Source: Opitutia bacterium Tous-C1TDCM (lineage in GTDB: Bacteria > Verrucomicrobiota > Verrucomicrobiia > Opitutales > Opitutaceae). From it: a stretch of 48,047 bases of DNA. The stretch is taken from assembly GCA_002288455.1 (NCBI GenBank), contig NEUS01000018.1:1-48047 (forward strand), written 5' to 3'. The notes under the pieces are model-generated. The model saw only the letters and a program-made list of their open reading frames with translations, was not told the DNA's origin and did not search any database. Shown here piece after piece: positions 271-47,923 of the stretch (the stretch's first letter is position 1; each line of letters begins with the position of its first letter). The position numbers and the translations under genes are program-made.

Positions 271-307
271 GGACTCAAACTCCGAACTCAAAACTCCGAA
301 CTCCGGA
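271..307. repeat. Heptamer repeat copy 1
   Basis: Five imperfect 7-nt units on the plus strand: GGACTCA, AACTCCG, AACTCAA, AACTCCG, AACTCCG. Read on the strand of the SGNH gene (minus) the units are GAGTTCG/GAGTTTT. The array starts about 24 nt beyond that gene's stop codon. The same AACTCYG unit appears in the purL insertion near 15.48 kb. Confidence 0.8.
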
Positions 308-308
308 C

Positions 309-336
309 CGATGAACGGCGCGAGCGCCGTTCATCG
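309..336 (-). terminator. Hairpin containing the SGNH hydrolase stop codon
   Basis: A perfect 13-bp inverted repeat (CGATGAACGGCGC, loop GA, GCGCCGTTCATCG). The TGA of the gene at 331-1080 lies inside the stem. No T-tract follows on either strand, so classical intrinsic termination is uncertain. Confidence 0.4.
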
Positions 337-1080
337 CATCAGCTTCGCCAGCGGCTCCTTGATCGCCGCGGCCCAGAGCTCGTAGCCCTGGTCGACGGGG
401 TGGAGGAAGTCGGGCATGATCTCTTTCGGCAGAGTGCCGTCGGCGGCGAGAAACTTGGCGTTGATGTCGAGGAAGTGGACGTTCTTGCCGTCGGCGAGTT
501 TGGCGATGGCGGCGTTGATTTCCGCGATTTGCAGGCGCTGCGGGTGATCCGGCTTTTCGCCGCGGGGGAAGATCGCGAGCAGGAGAATCTTCGCCTGCGG
601 CTGCTTAGTGCGAAGCGTGCGGATGATTTCGGCGACGCCGGCGGAAGTTTCGGCCGGCGTACTGCGCGGCGTGGTCTTGTCGGGTTCGAAGCCGGTGTTG
701 TTGGTGCCGATCATCACGACGGCGGCCTTGGCCTGGTAACCGTCGAGTTCGCCGTTTTGCAGGCGCCACAGCACATGCTGCGTGCGGTCGCCGCCGATGC
801 CGAAGTTCGCGGCCTTGAGCGGGGCGAAGTGGGCATCCCAGACCGCTTTGCCGCCCTTCGGCCCCTCGCGGCGCCAGCCGTCGGTGATCGAGTCGCCGAT
901 GAAGACGACGTCGATGCCGCCCTTTTTGGCGATCGCGACGAAACCGTCGTGGCGTTTCACCCAATTGGCGTCGCGCGGGACGGGTTGGATCGCGGTATTG
1001 GCCGAGGCGGCAACGGTGGCAAAACCGGCCAGCGTGGCGGCGAGAAACGTACGGCGGAGGAAGGGAGTGAAAGAGGTCAT
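331..1080 (-). CDS. Secreted SGNH/GDSL-family esterase
   Basis: A 249-residue protein with an N-terminal signal sequence (about residues 1-27, ending ASA). Block I is GDSITDG with Ser64 as likely nucleophile. An Asn/Gly block is near GIGGDR (about 95-100) and a GTNN block at 126-129. The D-x-x-H pair is DFLH, Asp225 and His228. These are the blocks of the SGNH hydrolase superfamily (PAF-acetylhydrolase-like, rhamnogalacturonan acetylesterase-like). A role in removing acyl groups from carbohydrate in the periplasm would suit the adjacent rhamnose transporter, but the substrate is inference. It lies 171 nt downstream of rhaS on the same strand, with a heptamer repeat and hairpin between, so cotranscription is uncertain. 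The start at 1080 gives a normal signal peptide; its leader is pyrimidine-rich (AACTTTTCCCGCTC) without a Shine-Dalgarno. Confidence 0.85.
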   Translation of the reverse strand: MTSFTPFLRRTFLAATLAGFATVAASANTAIQPVPRDANWVKRHDGFVAIAKKGGIDVVFIGDSITDGWRREGPKGGKAVWDAHFAPLKAANFGIGGDRTQHVLWRLQNGELDGYQAKAAVVMIGTNNTGFEPDKTTPRSTPAETSAGVAEIIRTLRTKQPQAKILLLAIFPRGEKPDHPQRLQIAEINAAIAKLADGKNVHFLDINAKFLAADGTLPKEIMPDFLHPVDQGYELWAAAIKEPLAKLMR

Positions 1081-1195
1081 GAGCGGGAAAAGTTGGCGTT
1101 AGGCAAAAGGGTGTCGGGGTGCGGTCGCGGGCCGGAAGTCAAAAGGGGAAAGATTGTGGGGGAAGGTTCCGGCGGCTCGATGTCCGAAGGTCCGG

Positions 1196-1229
1196 CTTTC
1201 AACCTTCACCTTTCAACTTCGAACTTTTT
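1196..1229. repeat. Heptamer repeat copy 2, 3' of rhaS
   Basis: Plus-strand units CTTTCAA, CCTTCAC, CTTTCAA, CTTCGAA, CTTTTT-. On the rhaS sense strand (minus) the units read AGTTGAA/AGGTGAA. The array abuts the hairpin that spans the rhaS stop. TTCAACT at about 1212-1218 is also complementary to AGTTGAA at 1257-1263, which lies in the last codons of rhaS. Confidence 0.75.
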
Positions 1230-1257
1230 GAGCCGGGCGCCCGCGCCCGGCTCAAAA
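1226..1257 (-). terminator. Strong hairpin across the rhaS stop codon
   Basis: A perfect 14-bp inverted repeat (TTTTGAGCCGGGCG, 4-nt loop, CGCCCGGCTCAAAA). The rhaS TGA (1252-1254) is in the stem. The T-run lies at the 5' foot on both strands and not after the stem, so this is not a textbook intrinsic terminator. It could block 3' exonucleases or attenuate read-through into the esterase gene. Confidence 0.45.
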
Positions 1258-2241
1258 GTTGAACTGGTCGATGTTCGCCTTGTTGAAGACGAAGGGCTTT
1301 CCGAGGAGGATGTTGTCGCCCTTGATTTCGAAGGTGCCGAGGGAACCGGCCTTGAACGACGTCGCGCCTTTCTTGAGTTGGTCTTTCGCGAGCGCGACGC
1401 CGGCGTGGATCGTGAGGTAGCCGAGGTCTTCCGTTTTCCAAAGGATCACGGAATCGGTGACGCCGTCCTTCACGTAGCGGCGATTTTCGTTGGGCAGACC
1501 GAGGCCGATGACGCGGACCTTGCCGGTCTTGCCGGCCTGTTTGACGGCTTCGGCGGCGCCGGGGACGCCGGGCGAGCAGATCGACATGATGAGCTTGAGA
1601 TTCGGATTCGCGCTCATGATCGCGGTGGCTTCCGACTGGGCCTTGTCCTTGAGGTCGTCGCAGGGGCGGACGGCGACGAGCTTCATCTTCGGGTATTTGT
1701 CCTTGAGGCGGGCCTCGATGTGCTTCTGCCATTCGCGCTGGTTGGCGGCGGTGAGCGTGGCGACGATCATGGCGAACTCGCCCTCGTTGTTGAGCAAGCG
1801 GGCGGCTTCGTCCATCAGCGCGTGGCCGATACCCTCGGGTGTGGCCTGGTTGACGAAGAACGAACGCGCGTCGGGCATGGCGTCGGCGTCGTAGGTGAGG
1901 ACCTTGATGCCCTGCTTCTGGGCTTTGCGCAGCGCGGTCGAGATGCCCTCGCGGTTTTCCGCGGCGACCGCGATGACGTCGACGCCGAGCGTGATCCAAT
2001 TTTCGACGATTTCGTTTTGTTTGGCGGCGTTGCTGTCGGTGGGGCCGTCGAAGAGCAGTTCGACGCCGAGTTCCTTGGCGGCCTTTTCGGCGCCGGCCTT
2101 GCAGGAGATGAAGTAGGCGTTGCCCTTGGATTTCGGGAGAAACGCGACCACGAGTTTGGAGCTGGCGGCGGCGGCGGCGCCGGACACGGTGCCGAGCACG
2201 AGGCCGGCCAGCAGGGCGAGACGGAGGAGACGGGATTTCAT
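1252..2241 (-). CDS. rhaS: Rhamnose-type ABC transporter substrate-binding protein
   Basis: A 329-residue periplasmic binding protein of the Peripla_BP_4 type. It has a signal peptide (MKSRLLRLALLAGLVLG..., cleavage near GAAAA), then VVAFLPKSKGNAYF, the usual first strand and ligand loop. The later segment VILWKTEDLGYLT and the ending NIDQFNF resemble rhamnose-binding RhaS of the rhizobial rhaSTPQ system. The start was set at 2241 because the open frame upstream encodes a basic, non-signal stretch. It follows rhaQ by 23 nt and should be cotranscribed. LsrB-like or other sugar-binding relatives share the fold, so the ligand assignment leans on the divergent rhaA gene. The last codons take part in the hairpin and heptamer repeat described separately. 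Confidence 0.85.
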   Translation of the reverse strand: MKSRLLRLALLAGLVLGTVSGAAAAASSKLVVAFLPKSKGNAYFISCKAGAEKAAKELGVELLFDGPTDSNAAKQNEIVENWITLGVDVIAVAAENREGISTALRKAQKQGIKVLTYDADAMPDARSFFVNQATPEGIGHALMDEAARLLNNEGEFAMIVATLTAANQREWQKHIEARLKDKYPKMKLVAVRPCDDLKDKAQSEATAIMSANPNLKLIMSICSPGVPGAAEAVKQAGKTGKVRVIGLGLPNENRRYVKDGVTDSVILWKTEDLGYLTIHAGVALAKDQLKKGATSFKAGSLGTFEIKGDNILLGKPFVFNKANIDQFNF

Positions 2242-2264
2242 GCGGGGAGGGGGAAAGGCGGGAA

Positions 2265-3335
2265 CTAGCCGGCGCGGGCGGGATGCCGGGCGCGCCACTG
2301 CGCCCAGTGTCGCGGCAAAACGCCGGCCGTCAACGCGAGCAACAGCAGGGCGCCGGTGAGCAAACCGGAGATTTCCTCGGCGGCATTCAGGCGCATGACG
2401 GCGGGCAAAGTGGCGAGGCCGTTTTTCAGGACCGCGATGGCGGCCACGCCGATGAGGGTGCCGTAAATGCTGCCGGTGCCGCCGAAGATGCTCGTGCCGC
2501 CGAGCACGACGGCGGTGATGGCGAAGAGTTCGTAGCCGGTCCCGGCGTCGGCCTTGGCCTGGCCGAGGCGGGCCGTGTAGATGATGGCGGCGAGGGCGGC
2601 GATCACGCCGGCGATGACGTAGGCCGAAGCCACGCGGCGGTCGACGGGCAGGCCGGCATAGCGGGCGCCCTCGGGAGCGAATCCAATCGCCCGATACGAA
2701 CGCCCGAAGGTCGTGCGGTGCACCAGCAGCCAGATCGCGGCCGCGACGGCAAAGAAGAGCCAGGCCTGCGCCGGCAAACCGAGCAGGCGTTCCTGGCCGA
2801 GGAAGAGGAAACCGGCGGGAAAATCCGTGTACGTGACGGAGCCGCGCGTGATCGCTTCGGCGAGCCCGCGGAAAAGGGAATACGTGCCAAGCGTCACGAT
2901 CAGCGGCGGGAGTTTGAGCTGCGTGATCAGGGCGCCGTTGAGGCCGCCGGCGAGGGCTCCGACGACCAGCGTGAGCGCGATCGCGACCGGGATCGGCAAA
3001 CCCGCATCGTGCCAGAACGAGCCGAAGAGAATGGCGGAAAGCCCGAGCAGGGAACCGACGGAAAGATCGATGCCGCCGGTGATGATCACGGGTGTGAGCG
3101 CGAGGGCGAGCAGGCCGATTTCGCAGGAGTGGCGGAGAATATCGAATTGCCGGTCGAGGGTGCCGAAGCCGACCACGATGCCGCGGCGGTTAACCGTTGT
3201 CCCGGCGAAGTAGAAGAACAGCCACAGCGCGATGAGGACGTAGAGCAGAATCATCTCGTGGCTCAGCAGCCGGTCTTTCCAGACCGAGGCCGAACCCGAA
3301 TTCCGGGAGGAGGAGGAACGCTGATGATCGCTCAT
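2265..3335 (-). CDS. rhaQ: Sugar ABC transporter permease (rhamnose type)
   Basis: A 356-residue BPD_transp_2 family permease with about ten hydrophobic segments. It carries the conserved loop GGIDLSVGS, expected after an early membrane helix and seen in ribose, rhamnose and autoinducer-2 transporters. Translation from 3335 gives MSDHQRSSSSRNSG before the first helix. That ATG lies within the inverted repeat bounding the inserted GxxExxY unit, so the present N-terminus was at least partly supplied by the insertion; a further in-frame ATG occurs at HEMILLY. It pairs with the permease at 3771-4700, to which it is related but not identical. The names rhaP and rhaQ are given by gene order only. 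Confidence 0.85.
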   Translation of the reverse strand: MSDHQRSSSSRNSGSASVWKDRLLSHEMILLYVLIALWLFFYFAGTTVNRRGIVVGFGTLDRQFDILRHSCEIGLLALALTPVIITGGIDLSVGSLLGLSAILFGSFWHDAGLPIPVAIALTLVVGALAGGLNGALITQLKLPPLIVTLGTYSLFRGLAEAITRGSVTYTDFPAGFLFLGQERLLGLPAQAWLFFAVAAAIWLLVHRTTFGRSYRAIGFAPEGARYAGLPVDRRVASAYVIAGVIAALAAIIYTARLGQAKADAGTGYELFAITAVVLGGTSIFGGTGSIYGTLIGVAAIAVLKNGLATLPAVMRLNAAEEISGLLTGALLLLALTAGVLPRHWAQWRARHPARAG

Positions 3336-3348
3336 GGGCGCTGATCGG
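3317..3348 (+). repeat. Left inverted repeat of the GxxExxY unit
   Basis: Reads AACGCTGAT, a 12-nt spacer, then GCGCTGATCGG. It contains, on the minus strand, the ATG used as the start of rhaQ (3333-3335). Confidence 0.65.
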
Positions 3349-3739
3349 ACGCGATGAACTCGGAGAGGATCATCCGCTTCCATTCGAGGTTACCGGCGTG
3401 TCCGAAGTTGATGAGGTAGCCGACCGGTCGGCGAGTGATGCGCAGATAGTTGAAGAGTTGCGCCTCGTGTTCGGAAGCCAAGGCGGTGACCGCTTTCAGT
3501 TCGACGACCAGACTGCCGAAGACCTCGAGGTCCGGAAGGTACCGTTTCTTCAACTCCCGGCCTTTGTACGTGCACGCGATCTCACGTTTTGCGGCGAAAG
3601 GAATGCCCCGGAACCCGAGTTCGAGCTCAAGACACTCCTGGTAGATTTCCTCGGCCATGCCGTAGCCCCGGTCGTTGTAGACCTCGAACGGCGCCCCCAT
3701 CAGGCGGTAACCTTCTTCTTTCAGGACTTCGGGTTTCAT
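3332..3739 (-). CDS. GxxExxY family protein, PD-(D/E)xK-like
   Basis: A 135-residue protein of the GxxExxY family. The name-giving motif is G27-M-A-E30-E-I-Y33, inside GYGMAEEIYQECL. Downstream lies YLPDLEVFGSLVVELKAV, with Asp70 and E80-L-K82, which fits the core of a PD-(D/E)xK nuclease fold; Lys51 and Glu53 (AAKREI) may also contribute. The family is common in Bacteroidetes, Planctomycetes and Verrucomicrobiota, and no biochemical role is known to me. The gene interrupts the rhaP-rhaQ junction on the same strand, and its 3' end overlaps the start of rhaQ by 4 nt, so it is presumably translated from the transporter mRNA. Nuclease activity is inference from the motif alone. Confidence 0.85.
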   Translation of the reverse strand: MKPEVLKEEGYRLMGAPFEVYNDRGYGMAEEIYQECLELELGFRGIPFAAKREIACTYKGRELKKRYLPDLEVFGSLVVELKAVTALASEHEAQLFNYLRITRRPVGYLINFGHAGNLEWKRMILSEFIASDQRP

Positions 3740-3740
3740 C

Positions 3741-3770
3741 GTTCAGCGGCGATCAGCGCGGATCAGCGTT
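3741..3770 (-). repeat. Right inverted repeat of the GxxExxY unit
   Basis: Three direct copies of a GATCAGCG-like octamer on the plus strand (GTTCAGCG, GATCAGCG, GATCAGCG). Its reverse complement begins AACGCTGAT and matches the left repeat. It begins directly after the rhaP stop codon. Confidence 0.65.
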
Positions 3771-4700
3771 TCAAGATTTCCGGGTCCGGCTGCGCCAGCC
3801 GTCGGCCACGACGGCGAGGAGGATGATCGCGCCCTGGATCGCCTTTTCCCAATACGCTTCGATCCGCAGATGGATCAGCGCCGGGGCCACGCAGGCGAGC
3901 AGCAACAGGCCGGCGAAGGCGCCCCAGAGGTTGCCCCGGCCGCCGGAGATCGCGACGCCGCCGACGACGACGGCGGCGATGACTTTCAGCTCGAGCCCGT
4001 TGCCCGTCAGCGGCTGCACCTGCGGCGATTGCACCAGGTTCAACATCGCCGCGAGGCCGACCAGCGCGCCCATGAAGACGAAAACGAAAAACGTGCCCCG
4101 CTGCGGCCGGATGCCGGCGAGCCGCGCCGCTTCGGCGTCGCTGCCGATCGCATACACGAATCGCCCCGCCGCCAAATGCCGCAACGCCAACGCGAGGACC
4201 ACGAGCACGAACAACGCGAAACTCACGAGCAACCATTGGCCCGTCGCCTGGTTGAGTCCGAACCACTGCACGCCGTCGGGCAGGTTCACGAACTCGCCCT
4301 GACGCACGAGGTTCAGCCCTTGGCGGAGCGTCACCATGGTCGCGAGCGTCACGACGATCGACGGCAGGCCGAGCCCGGCGACGAGGAATCCGTTGAGCGC
4401 GCCGAGCCCGGCGCCGATCGCCACGGAGGCCGGCAGCACCGCGGCCAAGGGCCAGCCGCGCGCCGCGAGCAGGCCGGCGCAGACGCCGCAGACGGAAAAT
4501 TGAGAACCGACGGAAATGTCGATTTGCCGCGCGATGATGACGAAGGCCATGCCGCAGGCGACGATCAGCGTCGGGGCTTCGCGGGTGAGGAGCGACAGCA
4601 GCGGTTGCGGTTGATAAAACGCCGGCGCGAAGACGGCCATCGCCGCGAGCACGGCCAGCAAGGCCCCGGCGACCGAGAGTTCGCGGAAGTGCCGTTTCAT
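3771..4700 (-). CDS. rhaP: Sugar ABC transporter permease (rhamnose type)
   Basis: A 309-residue inner-membrane permease of the BPD_transp_2 family. It has a first helix at about 10-27 (VAGALLAVLAAMAVFAPA), the conserved IIARQIDISVGS loop at about 55-66, and the C-terminal helix IQGAIILLAVVAD. Its ATG overlaps the rhaT stop by 4 nt (ATGA), so the two are translationally coupled. It ends RTRKS directly before the right repeat of the GxxExxY unit. The natural next gene is rhaQ, now displaced by about 430 bp. It should form a heterodimeric channel with RhaQ, energised by RhaT and fed by RhaS. Confidence 0.88.
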   Translation of the reverse strand: MKRHFRELSVAGALLAVLAAMAVFAPAFYQPQPLLSLLTREAPTLIVACGMAFVIIARQIDISVGSQFSVCGVCAGLLAARGWPLAAVLPASVAIGAGLGALNGFLVAGLGLPSIVVTLATMVTLRQGLNLVRQGEFVNLPDGVQWFGLNQATGQWLLVSFALFVLVVLALALRHLAAGRFVYAIGSDAEAARLAGIRPQRGTFFVFVFMGALVGLAAMLNLVQSPQVQPLTGNGLELKVIAAVVVGGVAISGGRGNLWGAFAGLLLLACVAPALIHLRIEAYWEKAIQGAIILLAVVADGWRSRTRKS

Positions 4701-6190: not shown

Positions 6191-6198
6191 CGGGGAGC

Positions 6199-6262: not shown

Positions 6263-6362
6263 ACATTCGCCGTCGCGCGCCGCCGCGCGTGCCGGCAGGG
6301 TCCGCGACCGCACCGTTGCGGGCTCGACCTGCGCGCGCCGGTGCGCCACGACACTCCCTTCC

Positions 6363-8565: not shown

Positions 8566-8653
8566 GCCGACCGCGCGGTAAGCCCGTGGCCGGAAATCAA
8601 GCCCCGGATCCCGACGGCCGTCGCGGAGAACGCATCGGGGGGCGCGGTCCGGT

Positions 8654-8681
8654 CTTTCAACTTTCACCTTTCAGCTTTCAA
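8654..8681. repeat. Heptamer repeat copy 3, 3' of cardiolipin synthase
   Basis: Four clean 7-nt units on the plus strand: CTTTCAA, CTTTCAC, CTTTCAG, CTTTCAA. On the sense strand of the gene at 8697-10124 they read (G)TTGAAAG, CTGAAAG and so on, beginning 15 nt after its stop. TGA recurs every 7 nt and so falls in all three frames. Confidence 0.85.
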
Positions 8682-8696
8682 CCGCCGCCCCGCGGC

Positions 8697-10124
8697 CTAC
8701 AGCAGCGGCGACAGCGGCCGCAGCGCGGCTTCGAGGAATTTTTGCCGGAACGGCCGGCGGCCGAAAGGGCCGGATTCGATCTCGGCGCTCAGGGCGAAAT
8801 CCTGCTCGAGGATGGCCGCGAGGGCGGCGTTCTCCTTCGCGGAATGGAAGAGCAGGTTGAGCTCGAAGTTCAGGCGCAGCGACCGGTAGTCGAGATTGGC
8901 GGAACCGACCATCGACCATTGGCGGTCGGCGATCGCCATCTTGGCGTGGTTGATGCCGGCCGAGTATTCGAAAATGCGCACGCCCGCGGCGAGCAGTTGG
9001 TGGTAGTAGGAGCGTCCCACGGAGACGAGCCAGGGGTGGTCGTTGCGTTCGGAAATCAGCAGGCGCACATCGACGCCGCGGTTGGCCGCGAGCTCGAGGG
9101 CGGCGAGCACGATGTCGTCGGGCACGAAGTAGCCGGTCGCGATCCAGACGCGTTCGCTCGCCTCGTTGATCAGGCTGACGATCGATTTCGCGATCGGCTC
9201 GTTGCGCCGGTCGGGGCCGCCGAGCACGACGTGCACGGGATGCGGTCCGCCTTGGCCGGCCGTGGGGTAGAATTTTTCCTCCGCGATCTGTTCGTCGGTC
9301 GCGAAAAACCAATCGTCGGCAAACACCGCCTGCAGCTCGCAGACGACGGCGCCGGAAACCTCGACCTGGATGTCGCGCCAATGGCCGAGCGCCGGATCGA
9401 GCCCGCGGTACTCGCCGCCGATGTTCATGCCGCCGACAAAGGCCGTGCAGCCGTCGACGATCTGGAGTTTGCGGTGGTTGCGCAGGTTCAGAAAGAAACG
9501 GTTGCGCCGCGGATCGAGACTCTGGAACCAGGAGAATTGTCCCCCGGCGGCGCGGAGCTCCGCGACCAGGTCTTCGTCGAGATCGTGCGAGCCGACGCCG
9601 TCGAGCAGGAGCCGGACTTTGACGCCGCGCCGGGCGGCGGCGGTCAGCAGCGCGAGGAACTCGCGGCCGACCTCGTCGGGTTGCCAGATGTAAAACTCGA
9701 TGTGGATGTGGTCGCGGGCGGTGCGGATGCGTTCGGCGAGGGCCGGATAGAATTGGTCCGCGTCGCGCAGGATGCGCAGCTCGGAACCCGAGCTGGCGGG
9801 AATCTGGTTGATGCGGCTGAGCAGGCGGAGGAACTGGCGGTCGCGCCGGGGCAGCTCGGCCAGCAGTTGGCCGGTGGCCTGGTCGTGGGCGGCCGCGGGG
9901 AAAGGCCGGCGTGTCGTGCGCGCGGAGAAGAGGTTGCGGCGTTTGAGCCGGCGGCGCTTGAGCCGATCGGTGCCGAACAGCAAGTAGGCGAAGGAACCGA
10001 GGTACGGGATGAAGATGATCGCCCAGAGCCAAGCGAGGGTGGCGGTGGGCCGCTTCTTCAGGAGCAACAGGTGCGGGATCAGCGCCCAACCGGCGAAATA
10101 GGCGATGATCAGGAGCAGTTGCAT
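8697..10124 (-). CDS. cls: Cardiolipin synthase (phospholipase D family)
   Basis: A 475-residue membrane enzyme expected to make cardiolipin from phosphatidylglycerol at the inner membrane. Two N-terminal hydrophobic segments (about 2-22 and 30-53, the latter WAIIFIPYLGSFAYLLFGT, the usual PLDc_N) precede a linker and two HKD motifs: NHRKLQIVDG with TAFVGGMNIGG, and NHAKMAIADRQ with MVGSANLD. Both have the full H-x-K-x4-D signature. It ends in the typical arrangement with two Leu before the stop (PLSPLL). The start at 10124 was chosen because it immediately precedes the first membrane helix. It diverges from the FAD oxidase gene over 108 bp. Confidence 0.92.
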   Translation of the reverse strand: MQLLLIIAYFAGWALIPHLLLLKKRPTATLAWLWAIIFIPYLGSFAYLLFGTDRLKRRRLKRRNLFSARTTRRPFPAAAHDQATGQLLAELPRRDRQFLRLLSRINQIPASSGSELRILRDADQFYPALAERIRTARDHIHIEFYIWQPDEVGREFLALLTAAARRGVKVRLLLDGVGSHDLDEDLVAELRAAGGQFSWFQSLDPRRNRFFLNLRNHRKLQIVDGCTAFVGGMNIGGEYRGLDPALGHWRDIQVEVSGAVVCELQAVFADDWFFATDEQIAEEKFYPTAGQGGPHPVHVVLGGPDRRNEPIAKSIVSLINEASERVWIATGYFVPDDIVLAALELAANRGVDVRLLISERNDHPWLVSVGRSYYHQLLAAGVRIFEYSAGINHAKMAIADRQWSMVGSANLDYRSLRLNFELNLLFHSAKENAALAAILEQDFALSAEIESGPFGRRPFRQKFLEAALRPLSPLL

Positions 10125-10232: not shown

Positions 10233-11624
10233 ATGCCGCCGTTTCCCGAATCGCTCCGCGCCGAACTTCGCGCCCTCGTGGGTGCCGAAAATCTGGTCGA
10301 GGGCGGCGAGACGCTCAAAACGCTTTCGCTCGACTACTATTGGTATTCGCCGGCGTTGCGCACGCAGCTCGACGACAAACGGGCCGACGTCGTCGTGCGG
10401 CCCGGCAATGTCGACGAACTGCGCGCGGTGCTGGCCGCCTGCTGCCGCGCCGGCGTCGCGGTGACGCCCCGCGGCGGCGGCACCGGCAACTACGGCCAAT
10501 GCGTGCCGATTTACGGCGGGGCGGTGGTCGATTGCACGCGGCTGGACCGCATCCACTCGGTGGCCGACGGCGTCGTGCGCGCCGAACCCGGCGCGCGGCT
10601 CGGGCCGATCGAGACGGCGGCGCGCGCGGCGGGCTGGGAACTGCGGTGCTATCCGTCGACCTGGATGAAGGCGACGCTCGGGGGATTTTTCGGCGGCGGA
10701 GCGGGCGGCATCGGCGGCGTGCGCTGGGGCGGTATCGCGTCCGGCGATACCGTGAAATCAATCACGATTCTGACCTGCGAAACGGAGCCGCGGACCCTGC
10801 GCTACAAAGGTCCGGAAGCGATGGTGGCGCTGCGGACCTTCGGGACCACGGGCTACATGACGGAAATCGAGATGCGGCTCGCGCCGAAAATCGACTACGA
10901 CCAATTGGCGTTCAGCACGCCGGACTGGAACCGGCTGCTCGAATGGACGGACGCGGCGGCGCGGAACGGTGCGTGGCGCAAACGCGTGGCCTCGCAGTTC
11001 CAGTGGCCGATTCCTTCGTATTTCAAACCGCTCAAAAAACACCTGCGCGACGGCGAGCATGTGAGTTTCCTGCTCGTCGACCGGGCGCAGACGGACGAGA
11101 TCGCGGCCGCGGCGGAAGCGGCGGGACTCGCTGTCGTTTACCGGCGTCCGCTGGCCGATCCGCCGAAGCCGCCGTTCCTCTCCGACTTCACCTACAACCA
11201 CACGACGCTGTGGGCGATGAAGTCGGATCCGAGCATCACGTATGTGCAGGCCGGCTTCACCGCGGATTTTCGGAACCAGTTCGAAGCGTGGCTGCGGCAG
11301 TTTCCGGACGAGGTGCTGTTGCACCTCGAATGGGGCGCGGTCGATCCGGCGCGCGCCGTCGGCCCGGGGGCGGTGCCCGAGGCGATCGGGGTGGGCGGCA
11401 TTCCGTTGATCCGGTACCGCGACGACGCGCGCTTCCGCGAGATCCTCGCGGCGGCGGCGGCCCTCGGTATCTACATCGGCAGCACGCAAACCTACCATTT
11501 GCCCGAGGGTACGGCGGAGACGGTTGCGGCGCGGCATGCGCTCAAGCGGGCGGTCGATCCCCGCGGGCTGATGAATCCGGGCAAACTGAAATCGTATCCG
11601 CTGAACCCCTTCGCTGTCGCCTGA
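10233..11624 (+). CDS. FAD-linked oxidase (GlcD/lactate dehydrogenase-like)
   Basis: A 463-residue flavoprotein with an N-terminal FAD_binding_4 (PCMH) domain: RPGNVDELRAVLAACCRAGVAVTPRGGGTG (about 52-82), the pyrophosphate loop, then GGFFGGGAGGIGGVRWGG. The C-terminal end PRGLMNPGKLK is the usual D-lactate/glycolate oxidase tail. The substrate is probably a 2-hydroxyacid or a similar alcohol; nothing in the sequence fixes it. ATG 10233 was preferred over an in-frame GTG nine bases upstream. It stands alone, convergent with the hydrolase at 11644 (19-nt gap). Lack of a signal peptide suggests a cytoplasmic or peripheral membrane location. Confidence 0.82.
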   Translation: MPPFPESLRAELRALVGAENLVEGGETLKTLSLDYYWYSPALRTQLDDKRADVVVRPGNVDELRAVLAACCRAGVAVTPRGGGTGNYGQCVPIYGGAVVDCTRLDRIHSVADGVVRAEPGARLGPIETAARAAGWELRCYPSTWMKATLGGFFGGGAGGIGGVRWGGIASGDTVKSITILTCETEPRTLRYKGPEAMVALRTFGTTGYMTEIEMRLAPKIDYDQLAFSTPDWNRLLEWTDAAARNGAWRKRVASQFQWPIPSYFKPLKKHLRDGEHVSFLLVDRAQTDEIAAAAEAAGLAVVYRRPLADPPKPPFLSDFTYNHTTLWAMKSDPSITYVQAGFTADFRNQFEAWLRQFPDEVLLHLEWGAVDPARAVGPGAVPEAIGVGGIPLIRYRDDARFREILAAAAALGIYIGSTQTYHLPEGTAETVAARHALKRAVDPRGLMNPGKLKSYPLNPFAVA

Positions 11625-12725: not shown

Positions 12726-16724
<3,999 letters not shown>

Positions 16725-18922: not shown

Positions 18923-20029
18923 ATGTCCCTTTCCTACGAAGCCTCCGGTGTCCGCTACGACCAACTCGACGCGTTCAAACGCGCGTGCCAGCAGGCGGCG
19001 CGCACGACGGCGGGGCTGCTCCGCGACCACGGTTACGCCGAGCCGGCGTCGACGCGCGGCGAGAGCGCCTACCTGATCGAGGCGGCGGACCATTTTCTCG
19101 CGCACGTCGAGGAAGGCCTCGGGACCAAGAACCTCGTCGCCGACGCCGTGTACGCCGAGACCGGGAAATGTTTCTACCGCGAGATCGCGATCGATACCGT
19201 TGCGACCATTGTCAACGACCTGATCACGTGCGGGGCGTTGCCGATCTCGGTCGCGATGCACGCGGCGGTCGGCGATTCCGGCTGGTTCGCGGATGCGGTG
19301 CGCACGAACGCCCTCGTCGCCGGCTTTGCCGAAGGTTGCCGCGCGGCCGGGGCGGTCTGGGGCGGCGGCGAAACGCCGACGCTCGGCGGCGTGGTCGAGC
19401 CCTCCGCGATCGTGCTCGCGGGATCGGCGATCGGGAAAATTCAGCCGAAGTCGCACCGGATCACGGGCAACGTGGCCGAAGGCGACGCGATTTTGTTTTT
19501 CGCCAGTTCGGGCGTGCAGACGAACGGCCTCTCGCTCTGCCGCAAACTCGCGGCGCAGTTGCCGCAGGGTTACAGCACACCGATCGGCCACGGCGACCCG
19601 CGGACCTACGGCGAGGCGCTGCTGGCGCCGTCGGTGATCTACGTGGCCTTCGTCCGCGAGTGCCAGCGGCGCGGTCTGCCGCTTAACTATGTCGCGCACG
19701 TCACGGGCCACGGCTGGCGCAAACTGATGCGGCTGGAGGAGCCTTTCGTTTACGAGATCACGGACCCGCGGCCGGCGCCGGCCTTGTTCCAATTCATGAT
19801 GGAGGCCGGGCCGATCGACCGGCGCGAGGCGTACGCGACGTTCAATATGGGCATCGGCTTCGCCGCCTTCGTGGCGCCGGATCAGGCCGAGGAGGCCCTC
19901 GCCTTGGCCCAGGCGACGGGCTACGACGCGTGGCGTGCGGGCACGGTGCGCAAACAGGGCAACCGCAAGGCCGTCGTGGTACCGGCCTTCGGACTCGAGT
20001 TCGGCGGCGAGACGTTGCAGGTGCGCTGA
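18923..20029 (+). CDS. purM: Phosphoribosylformylglycinamidine cyclo-ligase (AIR synthase)
   Basis: A 368-residue AIRS-family protein that should convert FGAM to AIR, the step after PurL. Recognisable segments are GLGTKNLVAD, DTVATIVNDLITCGALPISVAMHAAVGDSGWF, GGGETPTLGGVV and GSAIGKI in the N-terminal ATP-binding half, and FNMGIGFAAFV near the C-terminus, the PurM counterpart of the usual FNMGIGM. It is divergent from the compact E. coli type but has the expected length. Adjacency to purF and purL supports PurM over the related HypE or ThiL branches. Translation starts at ATG 18923 after a pyrimidine-rich leader (CTCCCGTTTTCCGCG). A heptamer repeat element begins 12 nt after the stop. Confidence 0.88.
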   Translation: MSLSYEASGVRYDQLDAFKRACQQAARTTAGLLRDHGYAEPASTRGESAYLIEAADHFLAHVEEGLGTKNLVADAVYAETGKCFYREIAIDTVATIVNDLITCGALPISVAMHAAVGDSGWFADAVRTNALVAGFAEGCRAAGAVWGGGETPTLGGVVEPSAIVLAGSAIGKIQPKSHRITGNVAEGDAILFFASSGVQTNGLSLCRKLAAQLPQGYSTPIGHGDPRTYGEALLAPSVIYVAFVRECQRRGLPLNYVAHVTGHGWRKLMRLEEPFVYEITDPRPAPALFQFMMEAGPIDRREAYATFNMGIGFAAFVAPDQAEEALALAQATGYDAWRAGTVRKQGNRKAVVVPAFGLEFGGETLQVR

Positions 20030-20040
20030 GCCGGGCTCGC

Positions 20041-20170
20041 TCAGTTGAGAGAGCTAGGTTGAGAGCTGAGAGCAGAACCGTTCGGTTCCTCAGCTTGAGG
20101 GCTGGGGCGACGATTCCCGTGTCTCGACGGGTCGATCTTTCAACCTTCAACTTTCAATTTTCAACTGAAG
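20041..20170. repeat. Heptamer/palindromic element copy 4, 3' of purM
   Basis: A left arm of GTTGAGA-type units (20042-20076), a hairpin near 20064-20096 (AGCTGAG, GAACCG, TT, CGGTTC, CAGCTT), a unique middle, and a right arm of CTTTCAA, CCTTCAA, CTTTCAA, TTTTCAA (20137-20164) complementary to the left. It shares TGAGAGCAGAACCG and TCGATCTYTCAACC with the element at 41850-41985, so the two are homologous. It lies between purM and the tricorn-like gene. Confidence 0.85.
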
Positions 20171-20246
20171 GGCTTCGGCTGAGGCGGGCAGCCGATGCTC
20201 GACAGCCGGAAAAGTCGGGCGCAGAGCTGAGGCACCCCGTTTTTCC

Positions 20247-41798: not shown

Positions 41799-41849
41799 GG
41801 CGGGGGTGAACGGAAGTGGAGGAGGTAAGGAAGGGGCGAAGGCGAACTC

Positions 41850-41985
41850 ACGCGGTTGCGAGAGCCGGGTTGGGAGTTGAGAGCAGAACCGGGCCGTTTC
41901 TCATCGTCGCAACCGCGTCGCTTTTGCGGCGGCAGCTCGATCTCTCAACCCTCAGCTCTCAACGCTCAACGTCGAGAATTCGCTC
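41850..41985. repeat. Heptamer/palindromic element copy 5, 3' of the TIM-barrel gene
   Basis: On the plus strand, TCTCTCA, ACCCTCA, GCTCTCA, ACGCTCA, ACGTCGA run from 41941 to 41975, ending 8 nt from the stop of the gene at 41984-42913. In that gene's sense they read GTTGAGC, GTTGAGA, GCTGAGG, GTTGAGA, with TGA in all frames. The other arm (41868-41887) has GTTGGGA, GTTGAGA. A perfect 12-bp inverted repeat, ACGCGGTTGCGA (41850-41861) and TCGCAACCGCGT (41907-41918), brackets that arm. It is homologous to the element at 20041-20170. Confidence 0.85.
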
Positions 41986-42913
41986 AGAGCAATCCCTGGT
42001 AGGCGAGCCAGAGGCTGCGGAAGTACTTCATCACCCGGACGGGATCCGAGCTTTCGGGAATTTCCGCGAAGGCGAAGCCGGTGAACTTGATCTCGTTGAG
42101 GCGCGTGAAGAGCCGGCGGAACGGATAGTCCTCCAGGTGGAGGTCGCGGAGGTGCACGATGAACATGCGGTGCTTCAGCAGATCGAAGTTGGCGTCGAAG
42201 CCGCCGTCTTCGAGATCGGTCGGATTGGAATTCCAGCAAATGCCGACGGCCGGATGGTCGGCGACATCCATGATGCGGCGGCAACGCGGCCCGCGCGACG
42301 TCTCGCTACCGTGGACCTCGAGCCGGATTTGCTGGCCGAGGCCGGCGCCGAATTGGCCGAGTTCGCGCAGCGAAAGCCCGATCTGCTCGAGCGTCTTGGC
42401 TTCGGGCACGCCCTTGGGCAGGGCATTGGGGCGGACTTTGACGCCGGTGGCGCCGACGTCGTGGGCGAGCTGGATGTAGGCCTTGGTCGCCTCGATATCC
42501 TGGCGGAGCTTCGTCTGGTCGGGTGTATGGTAGTCGTAGGCGCTGCCGAGCGAGGCGAGCTGCACGGGCGAATCGGCGAAACGTTTCTTCACTTCGGCGC
42601 GTTCGGCTTTGCTCAGGGCAACTTCGACGCCGTGGCGATGCGTGGTGCGCAGCTCGACGCCTTCGAACTTCGCCTCGGTGCAATTCTTGATGATGGTGGC
42701 GACGTCCCAATCTTTGCCGAGATTGTAGGTCACCATGCCGAGCCGGTGCAGCGGTTTGCCGGTGACGAAGGACCGGGTGGGGCCGGCGGCTTTCTTCGCG
42801 GCCTTGGCGGGCGCGGAGTCGGCGGCGCGGGCGGAATTGGCGAGGCCGAGGGCGGCGAGGGCGCCGAGGCCGAGGGTGGAATCGTGGAGGAAGCGGCGAC
42901 GGGTGGTCGGCAT
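41984..42913 (-). CDS. Tat-exported TIM-barrel sugar isomerase/epimerase-like protein
   Basis: A 309-residue protein with a Tat signal (TTRRRFLHDSTLGLGALAALG). After an Ala/Lys linker comes an AP-endonuclease-2-type barrel: GMVTYNLGKDW, FEGVELRTTHRHGVEV (strand with Glu), LEVHGSETSRG, VGICWNSNPTD, VHLRDLHLEDYPF and FAFAEIPESS. Ligand-type residues (Glu, Asp/Asn, His, Glu) sit at strand ends as in sugar isomerases. It is paired with a Tat-exported Gfo/Idh oxidoreductase downstream. Comparable pairs in Bacteroidetes and Verrucomicrobiota have been linked to 3-keto-sugar or glycoside processing, but the substrate here is not shown. The leader is CTGCTTCCTCTT. Confidence 0.82.
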   Translation of the reverse strand: MPTTRRRFLHDSTLGLGALAALGLANSARAADSAPAKAAKKAAGPTRSFVTGKPLHRLGMVTYNLGKDWDVATIIKNCTEAKFEGVELRTTHRHGVEVALSKAERAEVKKRFADSPVQLASLGSAYDYHTPDQTKLRQDIEATKAYIQLAHDVGATGVKVRPNALPKGVPEAKTLEQIGLSLRELGQFGAGLGQQIRLEVHGSETSRGPRCRRIMDVADHPAVGICWNSNPTDLEDGGFDANFDLLKHRMFIVHLRDLHLEDYPFRRLFTRLNEIKFTGFAFAEIPESSDPVRVMKYFRSLWLAYQGLL

Positions 42914-45047: not shown

Positions 45048-46442
45048 GTGATTTCAGTCCGCGTCCGGCTGCTGTTCTTCGTTTGCGCCGTGGCTTGCTT
45101 GGCCTCCGCGCGCGGCCTCGCGGCGCCGCGGCCCAACGTCGTGATCATTTTGGCCGACGACCTTGGCCGGGCCGATCTTGGCTACGCCGGCAGCGATATC
45201 CGCACGCCGAACCTCGACCGCCTGGCCGCGACGGGTGTGCGGTTGGAACGGTTCTACGCCTGTCCGGTTTGCTCGCCGACGCGCGCGGGGCTGATGACGG
45301 GCCGTTGGCCGATCCGCTACGGGCTGATGCGCACGGTGATTCCGCCGTGGTCCGCGTTCGGTCTGCCGGCCGAGGAGCGGACGTTGGCGGAATGGCTGGC
45401 GCCGGCCGGCTATGCGCGCCGCGGCATCTTCGGAAAATGGCATCTCGGGCACGCGCGCCGCGCGATGCTGCCGCCGCAGCGCGGGTTCACGCACTTCTAC
45501 GGCCACTACAACGGCGCGATCGATTACTTCACGCACCTGCGCGAGGGCGAAACGGACTGGCACCGCAACAATGAGACGGTGAAAGAAGAAGGCTACGCGA
45601 CGGACCTGCTGGCGCGGGAGGCGGTGCGGTTTGTCAACGAGTCCCCGGCGGATGCGCCGTACCTGCTTTATCTGCCCTTCAACGCGCCGCATTCCCCGTA
45701 TCAGGCGAAGCCGGACGACCTCGCCCGCTACCCGGAGCGGCAGGGCAACCGCCGGATCTACGCCGCGATGGTCGATGCGATGGACCAGGCGATCGGCCGC
45801 GTGCTCGACGCGATCGCCGCGCGGCCCGATGCCGACAACACGCTCGTGCTTTTCCTCAGCGACAACGGCGGGAACCTGCCGGTCGCCTCGAACCGCCCTT
45901 GGCGCGACGGCAAATTCTCCGTTTACGAAGGCGGGATCCGCGTCGCCGCGTTGGCGCGTTGGCCGGCCGGCGGGCTCACGGGCGGGCGGGTTTGCGCGGA
46001 GCCGATGGGCTACATCGACGTGGTGCCCACGGTGCTCGGCGTGGCCGGCGTGAAGCCGGAGGCGACCGCGCGGCCCCTCGACGGCCGCGATGTGCTTGCG
46101 GCGATGCAGGGCAAAGCGCCGGCGCCGCGGCGGCCTTGGTTTTCGTATTTCGCGCCGGGCGACACGGAGTGCGCGGCGGTGACCTTGGAGAATTGGAAAT
46201 TGGTGCTCACGGGCGGGGCGGTGCTGGCGGCGACGCCGGACGCGGCTTCGAAAATTGAACTTTTCGACCTCGGCGCGGATCCCGCGGAGGCGCGCAATTT
46301 GGCGGCGAGCGAACCGGACCGCGTTGCGGAACTGCGCGCGTTGCTCGCGGATTTCGGCCGCCTGCAGCAGACGGGCGTCACGGCCTACGCCGAAGGCCGT
46401 CGCGGTTTCAAGGCGCCCAAGGATTGGGTGATCCGCGACTGA
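45048..46442 (+). CDS. Secreted sulfatase (type I, formylglycine)
   Basis: A 464-residue sulfatase from a GTG start at 45048, chosen because it gives a normal signal peptide (MISVRVRLLFFVCAVACLASARGLA); in-frame ATGs lie 17 and 31 codons upstream and would add a basic, non-signal tail. NVVIILADDLG holds the paired Asp ligands. Cys75 in VCSPTRAGLMTGR is the residue converted to formylglycine. GKWHLGH and FLSDNGGN are further conserved segments. It removes sulfate esters from carbohydrate in the periplasm or outside. The maturase (FGE or anSME) is not in the window. It is followed after 92 nt by a second sulfatase, to which it is only distantly similar. Confidence 0.9.
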   Translation: MISVRVRLLFFVCAVACLASARGLAAPRPNVVIILADDLGRADLGYAGSDIRTPNLDRLAATGVRLERFYACPVCSPTRAGLMTGRWPIRYGLMRTVIPPWSAFGLPAEERTLAEWLAPAGYARRGIFGKWHLGHARRAMLPPQRGFTHFYGHYNGAIDYFTHLREGETDWHRNNETVKEEGYATDLLAREAVRFVNESPADAPYLLYLPFNAPHSPYQAKPDDLARYPERQGNRRIYAAMVDAMDQAIGRVLDAIAARPDADNTLVLFLSDNGGNLPVASNRPWRDGKFSVYEGGIRVAALARWPAGGLTGGRVCAEPMGYIDVVPTVLGVAGVKPEATARPLDGRDVLAAMQGKAPAPRRPWFSYFAPGDTECAAVTLENWKLVLTGGAVLAATPDAASKIELFDLGADPAEARNLAASEPDRVAELRALLADFGRLQQTGVTAYAEGRRGFKAPKDWVIRD

Positions 46443-46463
46443 ACCGCGCGCGGCGAAAGCCGA

Positions 46464-46534
46464 TTTCCCGTTTTCCCAATTTCCGGGTCTTCCAATTTCT
46501 CAATTTCCCACTTTCCCGATTTTCCCACCTCCCC
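46464..46534. repeat. Pyrimidine-rich octamer repeat between the sulfatase genes
   Basis: About eight imperfect 8-nt units ending at the start codon of the second sulfatase: TTTTCCCAA, TTTCCGGG, TCTTCCAA, TTTCTCAA, TTTCCCAC, TTTCCCGA, TTTTCCCA, CCTCCCC. The strand is almost purine-free, so no Shine-Dalgarno is possible. It differs from the other copies in period (8, not 7) and orientation. Confidence 0.7.
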
Positions 46535-47878
46535 ATGCGAATCCCGTTTTTCCAACTTCTGGCGGTTGCTCTGGGCGCGGCGGTCTTGCCGGCGGTACGG
46601 GCGGCTGACGCGCCGCGGCCGAACATCATCTTCATTCTGGCGGACGACCTCGGGCCCGGCGACCTCGGTTGCTACGGCGGCACGCAGGTACCGACGCCGC
46701 GGCTCGACCGGATGGCCGCGGAGGGCACGCGGTTCATGCAGTACTATGCCGCCGCGCCGATCTGTTCGCCGTCGCGCGCGGGACTCATCACCGGCCGGCA
46801 GCCGGCGCGCGCCAATCTCAGCAGTTTCCTGCAAACGAAGAAGGGCAACGCGGGCTGCGAGCAGGCCGACTACCTCGATCCGGCGGCGCCGTCGTTGCCG
46901 CGCCTCCTGCGCGCCGCGGGCTACGCGACGGCTCACATCGGGAAATGGCATCTCGGCGGCGGCCGCGACGTCACCGACGCGCCCAAGTTCGCGGCTTACG
47001 GTTACGATGAGGGCATCGGCACCTACGAGAGCCCGGAACCGCATCCCGATCTCACGGCGACGGCGTGGATCTGGTCGATGCAGGACAAGGTGAAGCGCTG
47101 GGAACGCACGGCGTTCTTCGTCGACCGCACGCTCGATTTCCTCGAGCGCCACCGCGACCGGCCGGCCTTCGTCAACCTGTGGCTCGACGACGTGCACACG
47201 CCGTGGGTGCCGGACGAAGTGTCCGACCGCAAAGACCTGCCGAAGAACTTCCGGCCCGTCATGGCCGAGACCGACCGGCAGATCGGCCGGCTGCTGGACG
47301 AATTGCGTCGCCGGAAACTCGATACGAACACCCTCGTGATTTTCACCAGCGACAACGGCGCGCTGCCGACCTTCGACGGTTCGCGTTCCGCCGGCTTGCG
47401 CGGCAGCAAACTCACGCTGTACGAAGGCGGGATCCGCATGCCGTTCATCGCGCATTGGCCGGGGCGGGTGCCGGCGGGCCGGGTCGACGAGACTTCCGTG
47501 CTCACGGCGTGGGACATGTTGCCGACGCTGGCGGCGTTGGGCGGGGCGGCGTTGCCGGCGGGGACGATATTCGATGGCGCGGACCTGGCCGCGGTGTTGC
47601 GCGGGGAGCAGGCGCCGGCGCGGCCGGACCTGTTTTGGGAGTACGGGCGGAACACCACCACCTTCAAGTATCCCGCCGCCGGCCGGAGCCCGAACCTCGC
47701 GCTGCGCCGCGGGCCGTGGAAGCTGCTCGTCTATGCCGACGGCTCGGGCGCGGAGCTCTACGACGTCGTCGCTGACCGCGCCGAAAGCCGCAACCTCGCC
47801 GCGGCCGAACCGGACCGCGTGCGCGCCATGACCGAGGCCGTGCTGGCCTGGCGGGCGACGTGGGCGAGGAAACCGTGA
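46535..47878 (+). CDS. Secreted sulfatase (type I, formylglycine)
   Basis: A 447-residue sulfatase with a signal peptide (about 1-23, ending VRA). Metal Asp pair in NIIFILADDLGPGD; formylglycine site Cys77 in ICSPSRAGLITGR; GKWHLGGG; FTSDNGALPTFDG; and PFIAHWPGRVPAG. C-S-P-S-R and C-S-P-T-R variants are both normal. The sequence is closer to arylsulfatase A/N-acetylgalactosamine-6-sulfatase-like S1 enzymes than to alkylsulfatases. The start at 46535 is fixed by the signal peptide; its entire 5' leader is the pyrimidine octamer repeat. A heptamer repeat begins 2 nt after its stop, followed by an IS-like end. Confidence 0.9.
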   Translation: MRIPFFQLLAVALGAAVLPAVRAADAPRPNIIFILADDLGPGDLGCYGGTQVPTPRLDRMAAEGTRFMQYYAAAPICSPSRAGLITGRQPARANLSSFLQTKKGNAGCEQADYLDPAAPSLPRLLRAAGYATAHIGKWHLGGGRDVTDAPKFAAYGYDEGIGTYESPEPHPDLTATAWIWSMQDKVKRWERTAFFVDRTLDFLERHRDRPAFVNLWLDDVHTPWVPDEVSDRKDLPKNFRPVMAETDRQIGRLLDELRRRKLDTNTLVIFTSDNGALPTFDGSRSAGLRGSKLTLYEGGIRMPFIAHWPGRVPAGRVDETSVLTAWDMLPTLAALGGAALPAGTIFDGADLAAVLRGEQAPARPDLFWEYGRNTTTFKYPAAGRSPNLALRRGPWKLLVYADGSGAELYDVVADRAESRNLAAAEPDRVRAMTEAVLAWRATWARKP

Positions 47879-47880
47879 GG

Positions 47881-47923
47881 GGCTGTAAGCGGAAAGCTGT
47901 AAGCTATAAGCTGAAAGCTAAAC
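47881..47923. repeat. Heptamer repeat copy 6, 3' of the second sulfatase
   Basis: Six units in the sense strand: GCTGTAA, GCGGAAA, GCTGTAA, GCTATAA, GCTGAAA, GCTAAAC. It starts 2 nt after the sulfatase TGA, and its TAA/TGA triplets fall in several frames. An IS-like end follows immediately. Confidence 0.85.

What the first reader, a model, noticed from the sequence alone, without database searches (positions are those of the whole stretch)
271..47923. Oriented heptamer repeats directly after stop codons
Seen: six intergenic arrays of imperfect 7-nt repeats (271-307, 1196-1229, 8654-8681, 20041-20170, 41850-41985, 47881-47923). Each starts at or within about 25 nt of a gene's stop codon. Read on the sense strand of that gene all are purine-rich, near G-Y-T-G-A-R-A or GAGTTCG. 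Because 7 is 1 mod 3, three successive TGA-containing units put a stop in every frame; this holds exactly at 8654-8681 and 41941-41975. Inference: they could be a three-frame back-stop for read-through or frameshifted ribosomes, a 3'-end processing or stability signal, or a mobile repeat that targets gene ends. Heptanucleotide tandem repeats (STRRs) are known in cyanobacteria; I know of no description for this lineage.
Basis: partly seen in the sequence, partly recalled or inferred. Interest (0 to 1): 0.82.

Follow-up and report, generated by a model that had tools for sequence, protein, structure and literature searches.

The report
Heptamer-armed elements at stop codons
Short seven-letter DNA repeats sit just outside many genes of an aquatic bacterium, and the best-defined of them are arms of a small jumping element that often lands in stop codons and copies the stop as it inserts, so the gene it hits is left unharmed.

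Summary
In a 735-kb sample of this Opitutaceae-type genome, period-7 arrays are intergenic (102 in 78.8 kb; 13 in 656 kb coding; shuffled 2.6). They flank gene 3' ends, avoid divergent regions (1 of 77) and keep a polarity: within 30 nt of a gene boundary 51 of 53 have the purine-rich strand reading outward from the gene, 32 of 34 without MITE arms. A stop codon lies within 2 nt of its boundary in 33 of 41 copies here and 33 of 36 in a sister genome; three copies have empty orthologous sites. A TGA duplication rebuilds the stop. The three-frame back-stop is not supported: heptamer families carry stops no more than chance (0.36 vs 0.33). Other arrays share no long core; some follow a stop-adjacent hairpin, and one PurL linker holds different heptamers in different species. 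Stop-proximal heptamers are published for Xanthomonas/Nostoc; I found no description of the stop-rebuilding element or PurL hotspot. No transposase was found.

The parts
20030..20179 (+). MITE-like element, copy 1 (150 bp): TIR, purine heptamer arm, core, pyrimidine heptamer arm, TIR
   Evidence: 41 hits to this stretch in own genome, itself included, first look capped at 40 scored of 243 candidates; profile and boundaries; absent at the orthologous stop in sister genome G154
20027..20029 (+). left target duplication TGA = stop codon of gene 18923-20029
20180..20182 (+). right target duplication TGA
41837..41983 (+). MITE-like element, copy 2 (left end decayed); right end abuts TCA 41984-41986, the stop of the minus-strand gene 41984-42913
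   Evidence: a better-preserved copy occupies the orthologous site in G154
41942..41972 (-). heptamer array, right arm of copy 2, purine-rich on the sense strand of gene 41984-42913
276..308 (-). heptamer array (GTTCGGA type), 22 nt after the stop of gene 331-1080
309..336 (-). GC-rich hairpin containing the stop codon, between gene end and array; one base pair changed on both sides in G154
1196..1229 (-). heptamer array (GTTGAAA type), 25 nt after the stop of gene 1252-2241
   Evidence: orthologous array in G154
1229..1254 (-). GC-rich hairpin beginning at the stop codon
8651..8684 (-). heptamer array (GTTGAAA type, four units) after the stop of gene 8697-10124; in G154 the same place holds a two-armed element ending at the convergent gene's stop
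8684..8696 (-). short 5-bp hairpin between stop and array; outer stem kept in G154 with a different centre
15432..15466 (-). pyrimidine arm of the same element inside purL
15505..15527 (-). 10-bp hairpin before the purine arm, inside the purL coding sequence
   Evidence: sequence, by inspection
12726..16724 (-). purL (phosphoribosylformylglycinamidine synthase), host gene of the in-frame array
   Evidence: Pfam FGAR-AT_N, FGAR-AT_linker, AIRS_C, GATase_5
47882..47923 (+). heptamer array (AGCTGTA/AGCTGAA type) 3 nt after the stop of the sulfatase gene 46586-47878; an IS-like end begins at 47926

Best explanation
Two layers. (1) Well supported: a short non-autonomous, MITE-like element (about 150 bp; 22-bp imperfect TIR, left-end consensus GCCGAACTCATGCAGTTGAGAG; heptamer arms GTTGARR inward from each end; variable core) has spread in this genome and its sister. 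It inserts at CTNAG and duplicates the central TNA. When the TNA is a TGA stop codon the duplication restores the stop at the upstream junction, so the insertion leaves the protein unchanged; copies therefore collect at stop codons, and none of the copies examined lies inside a coding gene. This explains 'directly after the stop' and the strand rule for this family, because each end starts with the purine arm reading into the element, away from the gene. (2) Inferred: the other arrays follow the same outward-purine polarity because they too are arms, or decayed single arms, of heptamer-armed foldback elements of several families that persist where they do least harm (gene ends, a linker in PurL), while unit sequences turn over by slippage and conversion between arms. 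Mobilisation is presumably by a DDE transposase of a TNA-duplicating type (IS5 / PIF-Harbinger-like, from recall); none carrying these ends was found.
For: Anatomy and copy number; TIR 98 hits versus 1 with the reversed pattern. Flanks, own genome, 41 distinct full-length copies in the loci I held: identical 3-mers on both sides in 19 (TGA 8, TCA 8, TTA 1, TAA 1, TCT 1); a stop exactly at a boundary in 22 and within 2 nt in 33; 0 of 41 inside a CDS. G154, 36 copies in loci held: stop exact in 30, within 2 nt in 33, 0 inside a CDS, identical TNA in 19. Null with the same 2-nt tolerance: CTNAG sites outside existing copies are 83 at stops, 94 intergenic, 339 in CDS, so 0.47 (0.54 without divergent regions) expected; P 1e-5 to 4e-4 for 33 of 41, 2e-8 to 1e-6 for 33 of 36 (null from the own genome for both). 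Empty sites: copy at window 20030 absent in G154 with the stop at the same place; one-armed copy in G154 after the stop at window 11624, absent here; own copy at L024:3902 absent in G154. Polarity 51 of 53 outward, order purine-then-pyrimidine in 12 of 12 neighbour pairs of differing orientation; 32 of 34 outward without MITE-profile arrays. The solo array at 8651 is a two-armed element in G154. purL linker: empty in some species, different heptamers in others.
Against: No transposase with matching ends was found in the window's genome (PF01797 1 hit, PF01609 2, PF13340 1 broken), nor a long TIR pair among those listed for G154 (list truncated, 159 hits in all, 19 in the reversed control). Only 19 of 41 own copies show identical flanking 3-mers. 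With exact boundaries only 22 of 41 own copies are at a stop, no more than the null (P 0.23-0.58); the excess there rests on accepting shifts of 1-2 nt caused by indels at the ends. So selection on CTNAG insertions, rather than a taste for stops, may be the whole cause. The other heptamer families share no long core: in one masked comparison the largest cluster (72 of 369 regions) was not dissected; around the 70 non-MITE arrays, 21 pairs of loci share flanking sequence at E<0.01, the 15 best rows only 27-40 nt long. In 6 of 12 purine/pyrimidine pairs the two arrays belong to different families.
Confidence: 0.7

Rival explanations
1. Three-frame back-stop: the arrays are selected because heptamers with a stop codon close all frames for read-through or frameshifted ribosomes.
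For: 25 of 63 stop-proximal arrays close all three frames on the sense strand versus 5.1 in shuffles and 9 of 250 control gene ends; antisense 8 of 63.
Against: 22 of 63 contain no stop (shuffled 11.2). Over 44 heptamer families stop content is 0.36 versus 0.33 expected. The same polarity holds before start codons (10 outward, 1 inward). An in-frame array without stops lies in purL.
Confidence: 0.05
2. 3'-end signal: hairpin plus heptamer array is a transcription terminator or mRNA-stability element, the array acting in place of a U-tract or binding a protein.
For: A stem of at least 7 bp lies between stop and array in 11 of 27 sense arrays 10-40 nt after a stop versus 4 of 250 control gene ends; folding energy from the stop -14.5 versus -10.6 kcal/mol median, P 0.015. 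At array 1 one stem pair is changed on both sides in G154. Arrays avoid divergent regions.
Against: 16 of the 27 have no such stem; ten arrays sit before start codons with antisense polarity; hairpin plus array also occurs inside purL; only one sister genome was compared for the stems; no RNA data.
Confidence: 0.25
3. Pure slippage microsatellites: period 7 is favoured by the polymerase and arrays simply persist where selection is weak.
For: No long shared core outside the MITE family; units differ between own and G154 at orthologous places; different heptamers but the same period in relatives. A polymerase-contact slippage idea is reported in PMC4692102 (Discussion read).
Against: Does not by itself give the polarity (32 of 34 without MITE-profile arrays), paired inverse arms, adjacent hairpins, or the MITE-like family with target duplications.
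Confidence: 0.25
4. G-quadruplex elements like the GGGAATC heptamers of Xanthomonas.
For: Same unit length, often four units, same polarity and avoidance of divergent regions as described in PMC4692102; a minority of arrays here (GGGTTTT-type) has G-runs.
Against: The commonest units here (GTTGARR, GTTCGGA, GCTGAAA, GCGGATT, ACCGGAA) have no run of three G, yet follow the same rules (by inspection).
Confidence: 0.03

Closest known systems
Heptameric G-rich repeats (GGGAATC, GGGGA(C/T)T) of Xanthomonas and Nostoc (PMC4692102; passages and Discussion read)
   Same: 7-nt units, preference for four, intergenic, close to the upstream ORF, on the coding strand downstream or the non-coding strand upstream, under-represented between divergent genes, sometimes inverted pairs
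   Different: Here several heptamers, mostly without G-runs, coexist; one family has TIRs, target duplications and empty sites; arrays occur in frame in purL
TAACTGA direct repeats of marine Beggiatoaceae (PMC4679880; abstract and passages read)
   Same: Heptamer direct repeats, mostly intergenic, stops in all frames noted by the author, mobility discussed
   Different: Those sit mostly just upstream of start codons in forward orientation; no TIR or target duplication in the passages read
Bacterial MITEs (reviews PMC10969869 and PMC2229807; starts of abstracts in the listing only)
   Same: Short, non-coding, terminal inverted repeats, multi-copy
   Different: Tandem heptamer arms and stop-codon duplication
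MITE with a minisatellite in Porphyromonas gingivalis (PMC4596501; start of abstract in listing only)
   Same: A tandem array carried inside a MITE
   Different: Different organism and array; stop codons not mentioned in what I saw
IS5-family / PIF-Harbinger transposons with 3-bp TNA/TWA duplications (IS groups and the TNA form recalled; 3-bp duplication of PIF/Harbinger in the start of the abstract of PMC2213677, listing only; a search for IS1031 and TNA gave nothing I used)
   Same: 3-bp TNA duplication at a palindromic target
   Different: No transposase linked to these ends
REP/BIME and REPIN with TnpA_REP (RAYT) (starts of abstracts in the listing)
   Same: Intergenic palindromic repeats
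   Different: RAYT elements leave no duplication (recalled); the one Y1 hit in the genome lacks these ends
STRR heptamers of cyanobacteria (Calothrix, as cited in PMC4692102)
   Same: Heptamer tandem repeats, several per genome
   Different: Not tested for polarity or mobility here

Membership tests
MITE | Terminal inverted repeats at both ends | tested here: met
   Best ungapped match to the 22-bp ends 12-22 of 22 on either side over 51 copies; 98 TIR hits versus 1 control
MITE | Target site duplication | tested here: met
   Identical TNA in 18 of 41 own and 19 of 36 G154 copies under strict anchoring; the other copies differ on the two sides or their anchors slip
MITE | Mobility: empty orthologous sites | tested here: met
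   Three clear presence/absence differences plus one diverged copy in about 93 kb of partly overlapping aligned blocks; three copies shared by both genomes
MITE | Short, no transposase gene, multi-copy | tested here: met
   About 150 bp, at least 41 full copies in own genome
MITE | Parent autonomous element with the same ends | tested here: not met
   None found in own genome or among the TIR pairs listed for G154; own genome is an 86% complete draft and the G154 list is truncated, so absence is weak. Not needed to call it a MITE, but the mobiliser stays open
IS5 / PIF-Harbinger derivative | Cognate DDE transposase | tested here: inconclusive
   PF01609 2 hits and PF13340 1 broken hit; best match to the TIR in their loci 17 of 22, none as a pair
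REP/REPIN (RAYT-mobilised) | RAYT gene flanked by the repeat | tested here: not met
   One PF01797 hit; best match to the element's end in its locus 14 of 22
Xanthomonas/Nostoc-type heptamer SSR | Heptamer arrays near the stop, coding strand downstream / non-coding strand upstream, rare in divergent regions | tested here: met
Xanthomonas/Nostoc-type heptamer SSR | G-tracts able to form a quadruplex | tested here: not met
   Commonest units lack runs of three G; a GGGTTTT-type minority has them (by inspection)
Cyanobacterial STRR | Shared sequence or descent with cyanobacterial STRRs | not tested
   No cyanobacterial genome was compared
Described RNA element (Rfam) | Match above gathering score | tested here: not met
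   0 matches in the window

The most novel reading that the evidence does not exclude
A so far unidentified process writes period-7 arrays of almost arbitrary sequence at gene boundaries, often beside hairpins, with a fixed polarity (purine strand outward from the coding sequence), recurrently at the same sites and across distant phyla; the stop-codon MITE is one product of it that acquired transposase-recognised ends. On this reading length and polarity, not sequence, are what the machinery specifies, which would explain why one PurL linker holds different heptamers in different species.
Probability: 0.25. Interest if true: 0.85.

Novelty: new variant of a known kind. Interest (0 to 1): 0.6.

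Why it matters
If right, it gives a simple route for a mobile element to fill a gene-dense bacterial chromosome without harm: a TNA-duplicating transposon that strikes a TGA stop rebuilds the stop. It also turns a loose observation (heptamer repeats are over-represented in bacteria) into testable rules: outward polarity, association with stop-adjacent hairpins, and occupation of one site by different heptamers in different species. The rules hold here mostly for units without G-runs, so the published quadruplex explanation for the similar Xanthomonas arrays would need revisiting.

Tried and rejected
Rejected: three-frame back-stop; G-quadruplex as the general reason (by inspection); REP/RAYT; a known Rfam RNA. 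Left open: terminator or 3'-end signal; pure slippage. RNA folding of the element gave -68.4 kcal/mol, z -2.16, 8 of 200 shuffles as good: weak, not used. Autonomous partner sought by TIR spacing in own genome and G154 and by transposase families: not found. A common motif over heptamer families (YGR 0.82 versus 0.54, YGRA 0.34 versus 0.17) is post hoc and not used. The first gene caller picked antisense ORFs and was discarded for that. The family-wide TIR search (100 of 150 genomes with a match) looks like its reversed control outside the own genome; G139 (12 hits) was not analysed further for this element.

Dropped before counts: 9 of 102 intergenic arrays at contig edges; arrays with purine share within 0.06 of one half (9 in co-directional regions; also left out; 15); a 4-kb G006 sample with 0% GC, taken as masked. 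The 10 'D4' copies come from the same genome as G154 (contig length 1,813,731) and are not independent of the 36. The copies counted are those in loci I held, many fetched because they carry the element. The polarity counts include arms of the MITE-like element; one search repeats them without.

It added the result that exact boundaries alone do not exceed the null in the own genome.
Full report
What the window is. G000 is a draft genome of 4.15 Mb in 160 contigs. A contig of the public MAG 'Verrucomicrobiia bacterium Tous-C4TDCM' (L064, 26,562 bp) shows the same sequence around its copy of the element as the copy in contig C119 of the window's genome, which has the same length, so the window most likely comes from that MAG or a near-identical one. 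Related copies occur in Opitutaceae MAGs. The closest relative held, G154, is 93.6% identical over 800 bases around the purL site and shares contig lengths with isolate D4_MAG_00009.

The observation. TRF reports period-7 rows at all six places. I built a simple gene caller from the sample (568 genes, 89% coding; 425 of 538 complete stops are TGA) and scanned 41 stretches: the window and the first 20 kb, or all, of 40 contigs chosen by number without regard to arrays (735 kb). Period 7 stands alone: 102 intergenic arrays (1.29 per kb) and 13 in coding DNA (0.02 per kb); period 14 follows as its multiple (52), every other lag from 4 to 16 gives 1-16 intergenic arrays, and Markov shuffles give 2.6 on average. 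At least eight unit families occur, among them GTTGARR, GTTCGGA/GGGTTTT, GCTGAAA, GCGGATT, ACCGGAA, GGCGAAA, GTAGCGA and GCGGTAA.

Gene context. Arrays occur in 22 of 67 convergent, 45 of 320 co-directional and 1 of 77 divergent regions. In co-directional regions those within 30 nt of the stop are 22 sense and 1 antisense, those within 30 nt of the next start 1 sense and 11 antisense. Together, 51 of 53 arrays within 30 nt of a gene boundary have the purine-rich strand reading outward from the gene (41 at stops, 10 at starts; 1 exception each), and the 12 neighbouring pairs of differing orientation all come purine first, pyrimidine second. Leaving out the 23 of 93 arrays that overlap the MITE profile, 32 of 34 read outward, so the rule is not just that element.

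The element behind two of the six arrays. The copies align over about 150 bp with inverted ends, two heptamer arms and a core. Of 41 distinct full-length copies in the own loci I held, 22 have a called stop exactly at a boundary and 33 within 2 nt; 19 show identical 3-mers outside both ends, 18 of them TNA; none is contained in a coding gene. In G154 a stop is exact in 30 and within 2 nt in 33 of 36, with 19 identical TNA and none inside a coding gene. The sites read CTNAG. Since CTNAG sites outside coding DNA are at stops in 47-54% of cases anyway, the excess is moderate: with the 2-nt tolerance on both sides P is 1e-5 to 4e-4 (own) and 2e-8 to 1e-6 (G154), but the exact own count alone, 22 of 41, is not above the null. 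Purifying selection plus target choice may be enough; I do not claim that stops are actively sought.

Empty sites. Aligned own and G154 stretches (about 93 kb of blocks, partly overlapping because own loci overlap) show the copy at 20030 missing in G154 while the stop stays at the same place; a one-armed copy in G154 directly after the stop of the gene ending at window 11624, missing here; and the own copy at L024:3902 (at a stop) missing in G154. A fourth difference (L024:7241) is a diverged copy whose stop relation I did not test. The copies at window 41837, L052/L095 and L017/L286 are shared; the G154 copy in L286 is itself interrupted by another small repeat.

The other arrays. Those of the window that could be compared (276, 1198, 8651, purL) have a counterpart at the orthologous place in G154, of the same family but with altered units, sometimes below my threshold. 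At 8651 the solo array corresponds in G154 to a two-armed element ending at the convergent gene's stop; of 27 genomes searched for that gene 8 have it, and in the six other than own and G154 no array follows within 190 nt, although the protein ends at the same residue. Eleven of 27 sense arrays 10-40 nt after a stop have a stem of at least 7 bp between stop and array, against 4 of 250 control gene ends; at array 1 one stem pair is changed on both sides in G154, at array 3 the outer stem is kept with a different centre. Non-MITE families share no long core: around 70 such arrays 21 pairs of loci share flanking sequence at E<0.01, the 15 best rows 27-40 nt long; in the wider comparison the largest cluster of 72 regions, which mixes several repeats, was not dissected.

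purL. The array at 15432-15504 lies in frame inside purL. In one search the linker was aligned for 13 genomes: own, G154, G122 and G153 have GTTCGGA/GTTCAGG-type units, G139 GTTGAAG/CCTTACC-type, G158 CAAGTGA-type; G152, G156, G159, G104 and G081 are empty; G150 and G157 have unrelated linkers. In one search (30 loci of 23 genomes; G175 does not reach the site) arrays pass the threshold there in own, G154, G122, G158, G171, G173 and G174, and at a second place near residue 1069-1092 in G139 and G174. Either the site is hit repeatedly or its array is rewritten; period and polarity stay. The data do not separate the two.

Function tests. Stops in all frames are frequent in arrays (25 of 63) because the commonest family contains TGA, but 22 of 63 have none, and at family level stops are not enriched (0.36 versus 0.33). 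So the back-stop is at best incidental.

Prior work. PMC4692102 (passages and Discussion read) describes heptamers in Xanthomonas and Nostoc with the same preference for four units, closeness to the upstream ORF, strand preference and avoidance of divergent regions, and proposes quadruplexes; the commonest units here have no run of three G, though a GGGTTTT-type minority does. PMC4679880 (abstract and passages read) describes TAACTGA repeats. My searches on stop codons and insertions, repeats in Opitutaceae and heptamers listed no description of the element or the purL hotspot; I saw listings, not whole papers, and the library holds open-licence papers only.

What is shown and what is inferred. 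Shown: enrichment, polarity, anatomy, target duplications, empty sites, closeness to stops, the purL diversity. Inferred: a DDE transposase as mobiliser, selection as the cause of the stop bias, and that solo arrays are mostly remnants or relatives of heptamer-armed elements.

Noticed in passing
window 12638 and 10 more in L131-L166: A 27-bp near-perfect palindrome, GCAAAGTAACCCAATAGGTTACTTTGC: 11 copies of its core in the 735-kb own sample, all intergenic, 0 in 460 kb of sister genome G154 and 0 in the other relatives' samples searched; a lineage-specific palindromic repeat of unknown nature.
   Followed up: partly
window 47926-48047 (runs off the end); L154:12851; L161 first 122 bases: An insertion-sequence-like end TGAGCTTGCCCCGATTTGACGGACACGG followed by an ORF start; the three exact copies in loci held lie at contig ends, about 3, 37 and 9 nt from a heptamer array or a remnant of the element.
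   Followed up: partly
L012:4196, L025:4126, L047:1616 and L286 around 10855-11045: Another small repeat beginning GGAGCCTCTGAAAA lies in the right heptamer arm of several copies of the element; in G154 it is about 190 bp with inverted ends, so it appears nested.
   Followed up: partly
window 46460-46528: An 8-nt periodic run (TTTCCCAA-like) between a stop and the next gene, unlike the 7-nt arrays.
   Followed up: no
L204:5610 and 7885 (genome G122): Very long GGTCGGA/GGACGGA heptamer runs of more than 90 nt.
   Followed up: no
L146:6634-7095: A short predicted gene (about 122 codons) flanked by inverted GTAGCGA arrays, which could be a cassette or a spurious call.
   Followed up: no
window 3302-3787: A 484-bp stretch of the window corresponds to 38 bp at the orthologous place in G154; not related to the arrays.
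   Followed up: no
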